Positions 59,917-64,000 of a stretch of DNA of 64,000 nucleotides are shown here, piece after piece (positions within the stretch are counted from its first letter, which is position 1; each line of letters opens with the position of its first letter). The stretch lies in NCBI GenBank assembly GCA_000063505.1, contig CT971583.1:496001-560000 (forward strand). The letters run 5' to 3'. The notes below the pieces were generated by a model. That model saw only the letters and a list, made by a program, of their open reading frames with translations, had not been told where the DNA came from and made no database searches. The stretch is from Synechococcus sp. WH 7803. Its GTDB lineage: Bacteria > Cyanobacteriota > Cyanobacteriia > PCC-6307 > Cyanobiaceae. A program made the position numbers and the translations under genes.

Positions 59917-60153
59917 GTGTCTGACCCCGTAACAGCTGTTGCCGACTCCCTGCAAGCGCTGCGCAATGGCACCACTGATGAGCAGTGGGAAGGCTTGAAG
60001 GCCAACCCCCTGGTGCGCGATCTGATTAGCCGATGTGCCGATTTGGAGGCAGCCTGGCTTCTTGGCGACCCAGATTCCGTGGGGACCCCTCGCGGCCGCC
60101 GAGAGAAGGAGCTGAGGTCTTCGGTGGATACTCGTTTGCTTCTTGTGGCCTGA
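59917..60153 (+). CDS. Unknown 78-aa protein
   Basis: An ORF from GTG 59917 encoding a helical, charged protein: SDPVTAVADSLQALRNGTTD, KANPLVRDLISRCADLEAAW, then a basic DSVGTPRGRREKELRSSVD. There are no membrane segments. The frame is the longest on the plus strand here and the codon use resembles the main genome rather than the AT-rich island to its right. No family recognised. It lies just upstream of the precursor-peptide cluster but in the opposite orientation. Confidence 0.5.
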   Translation: MSDPVTAVADSLQALRNGTTDEQWEGLKANPLVRDLISRCADLEAAWLLGDPDSVGTPRGRREKELRSSVDTRLLLVA

Positions 60154-60214
60154 GGATGTACCGAAGCCTTATGGTCTGGAATGATGTTACAAAATAGAAT
60201 TTTTATCCAATAAA

Positions 60215-60239
60215 AAAGCCCCAAGTGCTGGGGCTTTTA
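60215..60239 (-). terminator. Terminator after the last precursor gene
   Basis: A perfect 10-bp stem, AAAAGCCCCA/TGGGGCTTTT with a 5-nt loop, lies 20 nt past the stop of precursor 1. It is followed on the minus strand by A/T run sequence (T run as AAAAAA at 60213-60218). It closes the three-gene precursor unit. Confidence 0.85.
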
Positions 60240-60258
60240 CAACTTTTATAAACGGGCC

Positions 60259-60606
60259 TCATTTTTTTGCATTTGCATTGATAGCTGCAGATCCAAGTGT
60301 GGCACCTGCTCCAATTGTGGCAGCAGTTACAGTTCCTGCGGTAACGATAGTAGCAGCTGCAACTGCCGCCTTGGCTTTTGCCTTTTCACCACCGGCTGCA
60401 GCCATTAATTCATCATCAGTAGTGGTTGTGAGATGCTCTACAAGAAATTGAATCATCTCAGCTTTGTCAGCTTCTGTGATATCAATACCAGCTTCATGCA
60501 GTTTAGAGATGCGATCGCTCTCATTGAGGTTGATGAAAGCTTCATGCTGATCAGAGCTCATGGAATCAATGAAGCTCTTGAGCTTTTCAATGTTGGGGCA
60601 AGCCAT
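60259..60606 (-). CDS. Nif11-type leader precursor peptide 1
   Basis: A 115-residue peptide from ATG 60606. Residues 1-73 form a Nif11-type leader (IEKLKSFIDSMSSDQHEAFI, then DELMAAAGG with a double-glycine cleavage site at 72-73). The 42-residue core (74-115) is Ala/Thr/Gly/Lys-rich (KAAVAAATIVTAGTVTAATI, GAGATLGSAAINANAKK) and has no Cys. Such peptides are exported after GG cleavage by bacteriocin-type ABC transporters. It is last of three tandem paralogues. Core modification is not shown; no modifying enzyme is visible in the window. Confidence 0.85.
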   Translation of the reverse strand: MACPNIEKLKSFIDSMSSDQHEAFINLNESDRISKLHEAGIDITEADKAEMIQFLVEHLTTTTDDELMAAAGGEKAKAKAAVAAATIVTAGTVTAATIGAGATLGSAAINANAKK

Positions 60607-60704
60607 AATTTTGAATCGACAATAAAGTGATGGGAAATTTAAGAAATTAAAAAATAAGTAATTGGCCTCTACGGCCATTAGCCAAGTGAGGCATCTGCTT
60701 GGAG

Positions 60705-60728
60705 ATAGCCCCATGTGCTGGGTCTTTC
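60705..60728 (-). other. Degenerate copy of the precursor terminator
   Basis: AGCCCCATGTGCTGGGTCT resembles the hairpin at 60215-60239 (AGCCCCAAGTGCTGGGGCT) with one loop change and one G-to-T change in the stem. It lies 20 nt downstream of the precursor-2 stop, at the same relative place as the intact hairpin after precursor 1. It looks like a decayed duplicate that would now permit read-through. Confidence 0.65.
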
Positions 60729-60747
60729 TGAATACATCAAGGTGACG

Positions 60748-61089
60748 TTAGCTGTTGCTGTTCTTTTTAATGGCTGCTGCGCCCAGTGTGGCACCTGCTC
60801 CAATTGCGGCAGTGGCTACAGCGCCTCCTGCTTTGATTGAAGCTGCTGCTACGGCAGCTTTAGCGATCTCGCCGCCGGCTGCAGCCATTAGTTCATCATC
60901 AGTAGTGGTTGTGAGATGCTCTACAAGATATTGAATCATCTCAGCTTTGTCGGCTTCTGTCAGATCAATCCCAGCTTCATGCAGCTTGGAGATACGATCG
61001 TTCTCATTGAGATTCAAGAAAGCTTCATGCTGATCAGAGCTCATAGAGTCGATGAAACTCTTGAGCTTATCGATATTGGGGCAAGCCAT
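60748..61089 (-). CDS. Nif11-type leader precursor peptide 2
   Basis: A 113-residue paralogue. The 73-residue leader differs from that of peptide 1 at only a few positions (for example IDKLK, NLNENDR, IDLTEAD) and ends DELMAAAGG. The 40-residue core is distinct at its start (EIAKAAVAAASIKAGGAVAT) but keeps AAIGAGATLGAAAIKKN, with a GxxxG motif. No Cys. The upstream ~50 nt are also similar to those of peptide 1, showing that leader, 5' UTR and terminator were duplicated together. Confidence 0.85.
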   Translation of the reverse strand: MACPNIDKLKSFIDSMSSDQHEAFLNLNENDRISKLHEAGIDLTEADKAEMIQYLVEHLTTTTDDELMAAAGGEIAKAAVAAASIKAGGAVATAAIGAGATLGAAAIKKNSNS

Positions 61090-61138
61090 GTTTTAAATGG
61101 ATAATAGGGTGGTGGGAAATCAAGAAATCAAAACCAAA

Positions 61139-61477
61139 TCAGCTCGCCTCGATGGCTGCTTTGCCAAGTGTGGCGCCTGCTCCAATTGTGGCAGCAGTAA
61201 CAGTTCCTGCAGTGGCGATAGTAGCAACTGCAACAGCCGTCTTAGCTTTTGCCTTTTCACCACCGGCTGCTGCCATTAGTTCATCATCAGTAGTGGTTGT
61301 GAGATGCTCTACGAGGTATTGAATCATTTCAGATTTGTCAGCCTCTGTCAGATCAATACCAACCTCATGCAGCTTAGAGATACGATCGTTCTCATTGAGA
61401 TTCAAGAAAGCTTCATGCTGATCAGAGCTCATGGAGTCGATGAAGCTCTTGAGCTTTTCGATGTTGGGGCAGCCCAT
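61139..61477 (-). CDS. Nif11-type leader precursor peptide 3
   Basis: A 112-residue paralogue from ATG 61477; the frame upstream is non-homologous. The leader is near-identical to the others (start GCPNIEK instead of ACPNIEK, and HEVGIDLTEADKSEMIQYL) and ends MAAAGG. The 39-residue core (EKAKAKTAVAVATIATAG, then TVTAATIGAGATLGKAAIEA) is closest to peptide 1. It is the first of the three in the transcript and follows a 186-nt promoter-bearing region downstream of the HlyD gene. Confidence 0.85.
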   Translation of the reverse strand: MGCPNIEKLKSFIDSMSSDQHEAFLNLNENDRISKLHEVGIDLTEADKSEMIQYLVEHLTTTTDDELMAAAGGEKAKAKTAVAVATIATAGTVTAATIGAGATLGKAAIEAS

Positions 61478-61544
61478 TGAAATCGTTGAGTGAGTGTGGT
61501 GTTGTTGATCAAAAAAATAGTCTTGACAGACTAGATTTTGACCC

Positions 61545-61572
61545 AACCAATGCATAGTTAAATACATTGGTT
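61545..61572. promoter_or_regulatory. Inverted repeat upstream of the precursor genes
   Basis: Perfect 8-bp arms, AACCAATG at 61545-61552 and CATTGGTT at 61565-61572, with a 12-nt AT-rich spacer. It lies 68 nt upstream of the precursor-3 ATG, in the AT-rich gap after the HlyD gene. It may be an operator, or a weak hairpin without a long T run. The role is unknown. Confidence 0.5.
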
Positions 61573-61663
61573 TTATAGATGCATAAATGCAACTCTGTTA
61601 TCATAACGCGTTGATTGATTAAAAAAAATTAAGTTGCCATTAAAGATAAGACCAAATGTGAGT

Positions 61664-62980
61664 TTAGAGCCTTAAGAGACCCGTCCATTCACGGAGAAAT
61701 GGGAATATGTAGCTTGCAGGGGCTCTATAGCGTAGTGTTGCATTAACATTCAATGATGAACCAAACGTAATGGGTGTTTTTGGTCCGTTTCCTCCAGTCC
61801 AGTCATAGCCAGACTGTGTGTTTGGATTGATGTCCAGTCTGGCAACGCCGGAATAAATCAATCCTTGTTGGATGAGTTGCTCCGCCTGAACCGACGAACC
61901 TGTTGTGGCAATTAAGTTCTCTCGACTTGAGGGAAGCGTGGATATAGAAACAAGTTCACCACGAATCCCACCAAATTCCTCTTGGCTAAATCCTTCGGGA
62001 GTTAACGACAGTTCATCGCCTGGTTTTAGGAGATGACTGTCCGCATTGCGAAAGAAAATCACTGCGGTATTGGGCGCATAGGCGGAGGTAAGACCTTTTT
62101 GACGTTCACTTGAGTTGCTGTCCTCCATCATCAACCCTTTTTGTGCATCAAAGACCAGAGTTGCAATGAGTTGGTTCGTTTGAATTAGATCACCTGGAAG
62201 CAACGATAAACCGAATACAGTCCCTTTTGCTGTTGCTTGAATATCCCCAACTCGCTTCAGTCTATTGAGCTCTAGAGTGGCCTGCGAACGTTTTTCAATA
62301 AAGTCTAAATTTCTCGACAACCTTTGCTCTTGATTTTGAAGGTTGAGCTGTTTTTTGTTTTCTAATAATTTAAGTTTTTCGATCTGTAGCGATTCGATGG
62401 ATTCGAGTTGGGAGGAATAATTTCTTTCCGCCGACAAAACGTCTTGCTCGCTGATTCCACCTTCTTCACGTAGATTCTGCGAGTTTTCCAAAAACTTCTT
62501 GTAGTTATTTGCTTGATTCTGGCGTATGGAAATTTGCCGATTAATTACCTCAATTTGCTCTGATACATCTTCTTTTTGGATGTTTAGCAGTTGATTGCTC
62601 CCTTTATTGAGAGTCATGTATGTATTGTCAAGCTTATTGATTAGGTTTTGACTATTGCTAACATTTAACTCTAGATCGGGTATTTGTAGCTTTACTAGAG
62701 TATCTCCCGGCTTAACACGGTCTCCATTCTTCACATTGACTGATTTAACTGTACCATCAGCCTCACTGAAGACTCTTAAAATATTTCCTGGACCAATCAA
62801 TAAGCCTTTCCCTGGAACAGTTTCAGGAATGCGACCTAGAAATGCCCAAAATAATACGATTAAAGTGAACCCGGAAAGGGAAGCGATCCATAGCCGATCA
62901 GAGCTTGACGTTATCGATGCTGCTTCATCGGATCCATCATGAACCGCCGGCGAATTTAGAAAACCTGTTGGATCAGACAT
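61664..62980 (-). CDS. HlyD-family adaptor of a peptide exporter (NHLM/bacteriocin type)
   Basis: A 438-residue membrane-fusion protein. A short cytosolic N-terminus and one helix (LWIASLSGFTLIVLFWAFLG, ~31-50) precede a biotinyl-lipoyl half (VFSEADGTVKSVNVKNGDRV) and a long coiled coil (~105-250, many Gln/Asn/Lys). The C-terminal half closes the lipoyl and barrel domains (ATAKGTVFGLSLLPGDLIQT; LKPGDELSLTPEGFSQEEFG). It links an inner-membrane ABC exporter to an outer-membrane channel. Its start and the ABC gene stop share base 62980, so the two are coupled. TolC is not in the window. Confidence 0.85.
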   Translation of the reverse strand: MSDPTGFLNSPAVHDGSDEAASITSSSDRLWIASLSGFTLIVLFWAFLGRIPETVPGKGLLIGPGNILRVFSEADGTVKSVNVKNGDRVKPGDTLVKLQIPDLELNVSNSQNLINKLDNTYMTLNKGSNQLLNIQKEDVSEQIEVINRQISIRQNQANNYKKFLENSQNLREEGGISEQDVLSAERNYSSQLESIESLQIEKLKLLENKKQLNLQNQEQRLSRNLDFIEKRSQATLELNRLKRVGDIQATAKGTVFGLSLLPGDLIQTNQLIATLVFDAQKGLMMEDSNSSERQKGLTSAYAPNTAVIFFRNADSHLLKPGDELSLTPEGFSQEEFGGIRGELVSISTLPSSRENLIATTGSSVQAEQLIQQGLIYSGVARLDINPNTQSGYDWTGGNGPKTPITFGSSLNVNATLRYRAPASYIFPFLREWTGLLRL

Positions 62981-64000
62981 TAGAAAGAGTTGGATCGCTT
63001 TGTTTTTTGAATGCTCGCTTCAGCATCTAATTGTGATCTCACGAGTGACCAAAATGCTGATTGTTTACTAACGAGCTCATCATAACTACCTGATTCAACG
63101 ACTACACCTTTATCCATCATTAAGATGCGATCGGCCGTTTTGATGGTGTTGAGTCTGTGAGCAATAGTTATTCGTGTGCAGCTCATCGTTGCAATGGCGT
63201 TCTCGACGATGGACTGAGAGACGTTGTCGAGAGCACTTGTCGCTTCGTCCATGATCAAAATCGAGGGCTTCTGTGCGAATGCTCGGGCAAGCATGATACG
63301 TTGTCTTTCGCCTCCAGACATGTTTGCTCCACCACTGGTTACCGGTGTTGAAAGTTTCAGTGGCAAATCCTTCACTTTATCTCCAATAGCCGCGTTGTTT
63401 AATGCAACCCATATTTCATCTTCGCTTATATTTTTACCAGCTTTTATATTGTCGCCTATCGTTCCGGATAATAATTCTATATCTTGTAGTACAGCGCCAA
63501 TAAATTTTCGAAGTGAGGGCAAGGAAATTTTTTTAAGATCTTGGTGGTCGTAACTTATAAAGCCTGACTGGATTGTTTCGAAGCCCAAAAGCAATCTGAT
63601 TAGCGTTGATTTTCCGGAACCCGATGTTCCGACTAGGGCTACATGTTCACCAGGTTCAATATTAAGATTCACCCCTTTAAGGATTTCTCGATTCGAATTT
63701 GGATACGTAAATCTAAGGTCGCGTACCTGAATCGACTGCACTGGCTTGGTGATGACTTGAAACTTAGTGCCTGTTTCAACATCATGCGAAAGTACACTGG
63801 AAAGCCTGTTCCAGAGAAAGGTCACTTGTTGCTGCACAACAACAATTGTGCCAATGAGAGATAATGCCGCACCAAGAAAAACACCCATAGCGGAATTAAA
63901 TCCCAAAAGATTTGCCAAGCTCAGTGTTTGACTGGCTTGACCAGGACTAAACAAAACATAGGCCGTAAAAAGAAGTATAATAATACTTAGTGATTGGCCA
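62980..64000 (-). CDS. ABC exporter (permease/ATPase), C-terminal part
   Basis: The frame runs off the right edge, so the N-terminus (including any C39 peptidase domain) is not seen. The visible N-terminal part is hydrophobic membrane segments (SLSIIILLFTAYVLF; GVFLGAALSLIGTIVVVQQQ). The ATPase follows: Walker A GTSGSGKSTLIRLLLGFE, Q-loop AVLQDIELLSGTI, signature SGGERQRIMLARAF, Walker B ILIMDEATSALD and H-loop TIAHRLNT. Together with the HlyD gene and the GG-leader peptides, it fits a bacteriocin/RiPP exporter. Whether it carries the protease cannot be seen. Confidence 0.9.
   Translation of the reverse strand, partial: GQSLSIIILLFTAYVLFSPGQASQTLSLANLLGFNSAMGVFLGAALSLIGTIVVVQQQVTFLWNRLSSVLSHDVETGTKFQVITKPVQSIQVRDLRFTYPNSNREILKGVNLNIEPGEHVALVGTSGSGKSTLIRLLLGFETIQSGFISYDHQDLKKISLPSLRKFIGAVLQDIELLSGTIGDNIKAGKNISEDEIWVALNNAAIGDKVKDLPLKLSTPVTSGGANMSGGERQRIMLARAFAQKPSILIMDEATSALDNVSQSIVENAIATMSCTRITIAHRLNTIKTADRILMMDKGVVVESGSYDELVSKQSAFWSLVRSQLDAEASIQKTKRSNSF

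What the first reader, a model, noticed from the sequence alone, without database searches (positions are those of the whole stretch)
60259..64000. Compact peptide-secretion cassette: three Nif11-type precursors, HlyD adaptor and ABC exporter
Three tandem genes encode paralogous peptides with near-identical 73-residue Nif11 leaders ending Ala-Ala-Ala-Gly-Gly, then variable 39-42-residue cores. Upstream on the same strand lie an HlyD-type adaptor and an ABC exporter that share base 62980. Nif11 leaders and GG cleavage are known for RiPP and bacteriocin precursors (NHLP/N11P families). What is unusual is that the cores have no cysteine and no modifying enzyme (LanM, YcaO, radical SAM) is visible. 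The cassette sits in an AT-rich stretch, so it may be an acquired allelopathy or signalling system.
Basis: partly seen in the sequence, partly recalled or inferred. Interest (0 to 1): 0.85.

Follow-up and report, generated by a model that had tools for sequence, protein, structure and literature searches.

The report
Acquired peptide-secretion island in a picocyanobacterium
A marine cyanobacterium carries a small imported gene island that makes three related short peptides with their own cutting-and-export machine, a possible peptide-modifying oxygenase and a surface adhesin; it is a variant of a known kind of peptide export cluster whose job is still unknown.

Summary
In detail: three tandem paralogues (112-115 aa) share a 73-residue leader ending AAAGG and carry 39-42-residue, cysteine-free, Ala/Gly-rich, cationic cores, next to an HlyD adaptor and an ABC exporter. 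Beyond the window lie a C39 peptidase-ABC (catalytic residues present), a YadA-like trimeric adhesin and, divergently, a JmjC oxygenase. These eight genes form a ~10.4 kb insert of 40-51% GC between 58-65% GC flanks, with a clean empty site (0 of 20 relatives examined carry it there). So 'no modifying enzyme visible' is superseded: the JmjC protein is a candidate tailoring enzyme, and its closest plasmid relative lies in a Nif11/LanM/NHLP-exporter cluster. Cysteine-free cores are not unusual near such exporters. The leaders score below the curated Nif11 cut-offs, so formal membership is unproven, though TIGR03798 is their best model. Cleavage and export are inferred from anatomy; the role (bacteriocin-like, adhesive/matrix, signal) is open. 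The genome length matches, from memory, Synechococcus sp. WH 7803, for which Haft 2010 and Wang 2011 already list such a cluster. New here, as far as my searches reach: insert boundaries, JmjC, adhesin, and absence of the precursors from the other genomes sampled.

The parts
60259..60606 (-). precursor 3 (115 aa): leader 1-73, core EKAKAKAAVAAATIVTAGTVTAATIGAGATLGSAAINANAKK (42 aa, predicted charge about +3.8)
60748..61089 (-). precursor 2 (113 aa): core EIAKAAVAAASIKAGGAVATAAIGAGATLGAAAIKKNSNS (40 aa, about +2.8); weak hits to Bacteriocin_IIc (E 0.0077) and cerein 7B family (E 0.7), both below cut-off
61139..61477 (-). precursor 1 (112 aa): core EKAKAKTAVAVATIATAGTVTAATIGAGATLGKAAIEAS (39 aa, about +1.8)
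61664..62980 (-). HlyD-type periplasmic adaptor, 438 aa; TIGR03794 NHLM_micro_HlyD just above cut-off; 186 bp from precursor 1
62980..64000 (-). C-terminal part of an ABC permease/ATPase without peptidase, 755 aa in all; the gene runs on beyond the window to the equivalent of 65247 (L009:3480-5747); best model TIGR03797, 547 bits, below its cut-off of 709
60156..64000 (.). in-window part of the acquired insert, which runs on to the equivalent of about 70536 (window = L009 + 59500). Beyond the window it holds, on -, a C39 peptidase-ABC (L009:5744-7978, 744 aa, Cys19/His92/Asp108) and a YadA-like trimeric adhesin (L009:7984-9702, 572 aa), and, on +, a JmjC_2 oxygenase (L009:9812-10996, 394 aa, His136-x-Asp138 ... 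His201). Relative G204 (L142) has about 105 bp here instead, between a conserved small ORF (59917-60153) and the ARD gene (L009:11023-11565)

Best explanation
A self-contained, horizontally acquired peptide-secretion island. Three precursors are made with a Nif11-like leader; the leader docks on the C39 domain of the peptidase-ABC, which cuts after Gly-Gly and, with the second ABC subunit, HlyD and a TolC encoded elsewhere, exports 39-42-residue (3.5-3.8 kDa), cationic, Ala/Gly-rich, membrane-prone peptides. The JmjC oxygenase probably hydroxylates some or all of them before export. The YadA-like protein, first gene of the exporter run, is an outer-membrane adhesin on the producer. The peptides most likely act at the surface or membranes of neighbouring cells. 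My split of roles: bacteriocin-like interference 0.45, adhesive or matrix role as for EbfG 0.35, signal 0.15, other 0.05. Shown: genes, motifs, gene spacing, empty site, restricted distribution in the samples, low dN/dS. Inferred: cotranscription, cleavage, export, hydroxylation, role.
For: Leaders end in a GG motif of the Nif11/NHLP type. The C39 triad is present and this is the only PF03412 match (E<=0.001) in the genome. The four genes YadA-like, C39-ABC, ABC2, HlyD sit 5 bp apart or overlap by 4 and 1 bp. Three TolC-family (PF02321) proteins are encoded elsewhere. A clean empty site and GC contrast show one inserted unit; 0 of 20 relatives examined have it there. Against the L029 copy dN/dS is 0.04-0.27 per gene for the seven genes comparable (precursor 3 is cut off in L029). 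Cores are positively charged, 46-53% Ala+Gly, with a conserved GAGATLG. JmjC catalytic residues align with NO66; its closest plasmid relative lies in a Nif11/LanM/NHLP-export cluster whose GG precursor core is also Cys-free and hydrophobic. A JmjC hydroxylase acting in RiPP maturation is known: BipG (PMC12707348, passages).
Against: Leaders fall below the TIGR03798 and PF07862 thresholds. Both ABC proteins fall below the NHLM equivalog cut-offs. The precursors lie 186 bp from hlyD and 49 and 141 bp from each other, so cotranscription with the exporter is not shown. Another long ABC protein of this genome (990-aa frame at 2295563-2297545) aligns to the C39-ABC from residue 51 on and could be a divergent C39 exporter. 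JmjC was found near 0 of 24 related exporters and inside an NHLP cluster in 1 of 5 annotated plasmid neighbourhoods of JmjC relatives. The cores lack His and Arg, the residues hydroxylated by the best-studied relatives (names, activity of NO66/MINA recalled). No immunity gene recognised. AlphaFold gave no confident core structure. Keyword searches (YadA, adhesin, bacteriocin, Nif11 and the like) in four papers with WH7803 proteome data found no passage tied to these genes; I do not know their locus tags and could not read supplementary tables.
Confidence: 0.6

Rival explanations
1. Community role: like EbfG1-4/PteB of S. elongatus, the exported peptides are surface or matrix components that, with the YadA-like adhesin, promote aggregation rather than kill.
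For: EbfG GG-peptides and the C39 transporter PteB are required for biofilm (PMC4997328, parts 1-2 of 5); EbfG1-3 form amyloid, EbfG4 is on the cell surface (PMC9981879, passages). An adhesin gene heads the exporter run. No immunity gene recognised; the cores of precursors 1 and 2 differ by one residue each between the two copies known.
Against: Cores are small, cationic and Gly/Ala-rich, and one weakly resembles class II bacteriocins. No sequence homology to EbfG was tested.
Confidence: 0.35
2. The JmjC gene is a passenger (for example a ribosomal-protein hydroxylase) and the peptides are exported unmodified.
For: It is divergently transcribed; its characterised relatives include a ribosomal L16 hydroxylase and NO66/MINA (names); cores have no His or Arg; no JmjC near 24 related exporters.
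Against: It lies inside the same insert, has no match at 1e-15 in 349 other family genomes, and its closest plasmid relative is in an NHLP/Nif11 cluster.
Confidence: 0.35
3. The peptides are pheromone-like signals.
For: GG-leader/C39 systems also export signals, for example ComA (named as competence factor transporter). Three closely similar paralogues.
Against: No sensor kinase, regulator or receptor gene seen in the insert; 39-42 residues is long for a pheromone (general knowledge).
Confidence: 0.12
4. A decayed remnant without function.
For: Restricted distribution.
Against: All eight reading frames intact; low dN/dS between two copies; catalytic and ATPase motifs present.
Confidence: 0.03

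Closest known systems
N11P/NHLP precursors with the three-gene transport cluster TIGR03794/03796/03797 (Haft, Basu and Mitchell 2010, PMC2887384, passages seen)
   Same: GG leader, C39-ABC, second ABC, HlyD, paralogous precursors. The paper names Synechococcus sp. WH 7803 among strains with N11Ps beside this cluster.
   Different: Leader and both ABC scores are below the curated cut-offs; JmjC and YadA-like genes are in the unit; no LanM or TOMM enzyme among the insert's genes.
Group V cyanobacterial bacteriocin clusters (Wang, Fewer and Sivonen 2011, PMC3140520, parts 1-2 of 5 and passages seen)
   Same: Short-type C39-ABC plus an extra ABC without C39 plus HlyD; the paper's Table 1 gives WH 7803 one group V and two group I clusters.
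   Different: Adhesin and oxygenase are not mentioned in the parts seen; supplementary tables were not readable.
EbfG1-4/PteB of Synechococcus elongatus PCC 7942 (PMC4997328 parts 1-2 of 5; PMC9981879 passages)
   Same: Several small GG-peptides exported with the help of a C39 transporter in a Synechococcus.
   Different: No homology test made; EbfG mature parts are 6-7 kDa; no adhesin or oxygenase gene reported in the parts seen.
Class II microcins (review PMC10233263, passages seen)
   Same: GG leader, C39-ABC, membrane fusion protein, TolC; class IIa needs no modification beyond possible disulfides.
   Different: Second ABC subunit; no immunity gene recognised here, while each class II microcin has one.
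Nif11/LanM/JmjC/NHLP-export cluster on Pseudanabaena galeata plasmid pPg_03 (NZ_CP112877.1)
   Same: JmjC relative (31% over 62% of the query), NHLP HlyD/ABC1/ABC2, TolC, Cys-free hydrophobic Nif11 precursor.
   Different: Has LanM and two 2OG-Fe oxygenases; no adhesin among the annotated genes of the stretch shown.

Membership tests
N11P (TIGR03798 / PF07862) | score above the curated cut-off | tested here: not met
   TIGR03798 23.6, 21.9, 21.7 bits against 32.3; no PF07862 hit; residues 1-60 alone still rank TIGR03798 first at E 0.0077-0.052
N11P (TIGR03798 / PF07862) | GG cleavage motif at the end of the leader | tested here: met
   DDELMAAAGG in all three; profile-profile score 24.85 against at most 15.34 in 100 column shuffles, 13 columns aligned
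NHLP transport cluster | TIGR03794 HlyD | tested here: met
   157.7 bits, cut-off 156.2
NHLP transport cluster | TIGR03796 and TIGR03797 ABC proteins above cut-off | tested here: not met
   681 against 853 and 547 against 709 bits; both are nevertheless the best models
Wang group V cluster | C39-ABC, extra ABC without C39, HlyD, nearby precursors | tested here: met
Wang group V cluster | position in the C39-ABC tree | not tested
   no tree built; best relatives in a 386-genome phylum sample are 36-37% identical
class II microcin | cognate immunity gene | tested here: inconclusive
   largest gap between genes of the insert is 186 bp and no candidate was recognised; the review says immunity genes share no sequence feature
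trimeric autotransporter adhesin | YadA head repeats and anchor | tested here: met
   PF05658 95.7 bits against 25, PF03895 29.2 against 22.7
trimeric autotransporter adhesin | anchor at the very C-terminus | tested here: not met
   anchor 443-505 of 572, about 67 residues follow
JmjC oxygenase | HxD...H iron site in a JmjC_2 domain | tested here: met
   PF08007 89.5 bits against 22; alignment to NO66 4ccn

The most novel reading that the evidence does not exclude
A new RiPP type: cysteine-free, Gly/Ala-rich Nif11-like peptides hydroxylated by a JmjC oxygenase and released by a cell that displays a dedicated trimeric adhesin from the same island, so that peptide delivery is coupled to cell-cell contact.
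Probability: 0.15. Interest if true: 0.7.

Novelty: new variant of a known kind. Interest (0 to 1): 0.42.

Why it matters
[quoted passage not shown] This island is a compact unit: three peptides, one C39 exporter, one candidate tailoring enzyme and one adhesin, with natural empty-site relatives as controls. If the strain is WH 7803, a type IV pilus knockout has already been made in it (PMC7994388, passages), so clean deletions could decide between allelopathy and adhesion.

Tried and rejected
Direct source of the insert: not found. No relative of the precursors in viral contigs, none of precursor 2 in plasmids at E<=0.01, none of HlyD in plasmids at 1e-20, none of JmjC in viral contigs. A plasmid origin is not excluded, since a cluster of this general kind does lie on a Pseudanabaena plasmid. 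A proteobacterial source was considered because the only other copy (L029) is binned as 'uncultured proteobacterium'. It carries the same order including the flanking ARD gene at 95.8% DNA identity, so I read it as a mis-binned close Synechococcus contig; not proven. A general link between YadA proteins and C39 exporters was dropped: in G213 and G271 a giant YadA frame lies near a C39 cluster but other genes stand between. Structure: AlphaFold of precursor 1 gave a helical leader (block pLDDT 65-82 over residues 1-50) and an unresolved core; Foldseek found nothing with E<=0.001. Promoter and terminator scans showed no clear excess over shuffles. PHROGs gave nothing for the two precursors scanned. 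The strain name WH 7803 rests on my memory of its genome length; a text search for that number found no paper.
Full report
Observation. Leaders (73 residues) of precursors 2 and 3 are 95 and 90% identical to that of precursor 1; cores are 39, 40 and 42 aa, free of Cys, 46-53% Ala+Gly, predicted charge +1.8 to +3.8.

The rest of the system. The window lies in a 2,366,980-base single-contig genome without a name; that it is a marine picocyanobacterium is my inference. L009 (genome 555501-575500; window coordinate = L009 + 59500) shows the remaining genes: the ABC protein is 755 aa and has no peptidase domain; its gene overlaps by 4 bp that of a 744-aa C39 peptidase-ABC with Cys19/His92/Asp108, the only PF03412 match at E<=0.001 in the genome. 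Another long ABC protein (990-aa frame) aligns to it from residue 51 on and may be a divergent exporter of the long type. Five bp upstream of the C39-ABC gene is that of a 572-aa YadA-like protein with head repeats and a membrane anchor. Divergently, 109 bp away, lies the gene of a 394-aa JmjC_2 protein whose iron-site residues align with human NO66. Three TolC-family proteins are encoded elsewhere. The precursors stand 186 bp from hlyD, so their cotranscription with the exporter is open.

An inserted unit. Names miaE, aroQ and cobI here are recalled; ARD is a Pfam match. Against relative G204 (L142), alignment runs to window 60155, right after a small ORF conserved in relatives, and resumes at 70537, inside the 3' end of the ARD gene; L142 has about 105 bp between. 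miaE was found in 29 of 31 genus genomes, own included. I fetched this region for 20 of the 28 others. All 20 keep miaE, ARD, cobI and the gene after it in order, and none has any of the eight insert genes in the stretch fetched at E<=1e-5. GC is 0.40-0.51 inside and 0.58-0.65 on the near flanks; window 40-46 kb is also low, at 0.48-0.56. The precursors were found only in this genome among 400 family genomes at 1e-4 and among 348 class genomes at 1e-3 (the samples overlap); the JmjC protein only here among 350 family genomes at 1e-15. The one other copy, contig CAJXNF010000066.1 (L029, binned as a proteobacterium), has the same gene order and the flanking ARD gene, 95.8% identical. Between the two copies dS is 0.05-0.17 in seven insert genes but 0.32 in the 112 codons of ARD available. 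That hints at exchange of the island between lineages, but rests on one short flank of different base composition.

Family placement. TIGR03798 is the best NCBIfam model of all three precursors but below its cut-off; PF07862 is not hit. Profile comparison with eight Nif11 leaders aligns only the last 13 residues (probability 49%), well above 100 column shuffles. Residues 1-60 alone still rank TIGR03798 first in the same register, E 0.0077-0.052. I call the leader Nif11-like. HlyD passes TIGR03794; both ABC proteins best match TIGR03796/TIGR03797 but below the equivalog cut-offs. The closest C39-ABC relatives in a 386-genome phylum sample are 36-37% identical.

Is the core unusual? Cys-free cores are common: a regex scan of 24 exporter neighbourhoods (22 genomes; flanks of unequal length) printed 28 GG candidates, 18 without Cys (14 of these from two genomes; candidates not verified). 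Ala/Gly-rich ones like these are rarer: one in G626 (0.46 Ala+Gly) was the only one of the 28 above 0.4. Two more GG peptides in this genome are Cys-free too.

The JmjC protein. Its best plasmid relative by score is on Pseudanabaena galeata pPg_03 (31% identity over 62%, E 2e-33), inside a cluster with Nif11 precursors, LanM, 2OG-Fe oxygenases, TolC and the three NHLP export genes; the longer precursor there has a Cys-free hydrophobic core. Of 89 plasmid records matched at 1e-8 I fetched six neighbourhoods, one of them without annotation. Of the other four annotated ones, Nostoc C057 has a Nif11 gene about 4.4 kb away, without a GG motif and with transposase genes between; Dolichospermum has a small GG-type ORF about 1.1 kb upstream; two Streptomyces show nothing comparable. 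JmjC was near 0 of the 24 exporter neighbourhoods. BipG shows that JmjC hydroxylases can act in RiPP maturation (PMC12707348, passages). So tailoring is a reasoned inference, not a demonstrated association.

Role. For interference: cationic Gly/Ala-rich cores and weak class II bacteriocin matches for precursor 2. For adhesion or matrix: the adhesin gene at the head of the exporter run, no recognised immunity gene (largest gap between insert genes 186 bp), and the precedent of EbfG/PteB. I cannot separate them from sequence.

What was known. Haft et al. 2010 name Synechococcus sp. WH 7803 among strains with N11Ps beside the TIGR03794/03796/03797 cluster (PMC2887384, passages); Wang et al. 2011 give WH 7803 one group V cluster (PMC3140520). 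The genome length here equals that of WH 7803 as I remember it; no tool confirmed the name. If so, the existence of this cluster was already recorded in outline. In the held library no paper has both Nif11 and JmjC; a search for NHLP, Nif11, adhesin, YadA and trimeric autotransporter returned 222 papers with three or more terms, and the 8 listed hold neither NHLP nor Nif11. The insert boundaries, JmjC, adhesin and distribution are new as far as those searches reach.

Noticed in passing
G000:C1:364793-365002 (L010) and 998428-998637 (L011): Two unlinked Nif11-leader GG peptides in the same genome, also with Cys-free cores; the island's C39-ABC might export them in trans.
   Followed up: partly
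miaE-ARD interval in L140-L159: A variable insertion site: about 0.35 kb in some of the 20 relatives, up to 5.5 kb in others, with different cargo (for example a radical-SAM-like protein by eye in L151 and L159, a 536-538 aa protein in L141, L147 and L149).
   Followed up: partly
e.g. G271:C25:218-230 kb, G289:C1:906-918 kb: YadA-head relatives in 10 of 31 genus genomes (own included), some in reading frames of 2600-4800 aa; several align with the tail that follows the anchor in the island protein.
   Followed up: no
L029 1-339 versus the island genes: Flanking ARD gene shows dS 0.32 against 0.05-0.17 for seven island genes between the two copies, suggesting recombination of the island; one short flank only.
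   Followed up: partly
L188 (NZ_CP112877.1 3371-28111): A plasmid RiPP cluster with Nif11 precursor, LanM, JmjC and 2OG-Fe oxygenases and the full NHLP export set.
   Followed up: partly
L207 (G429:C40) 69-1577: Four tandem GG precursors with near-identical leader ends and variable Cys-free cores, roughly 13 kb from an NHLP-type exporter.
   Followed up: no
window 60207-60240: By eye, a hairpin with a T-rich tail on the - strand just after precursor 3, terminator-like; the consensus scan did not list it.
   Followed up: no
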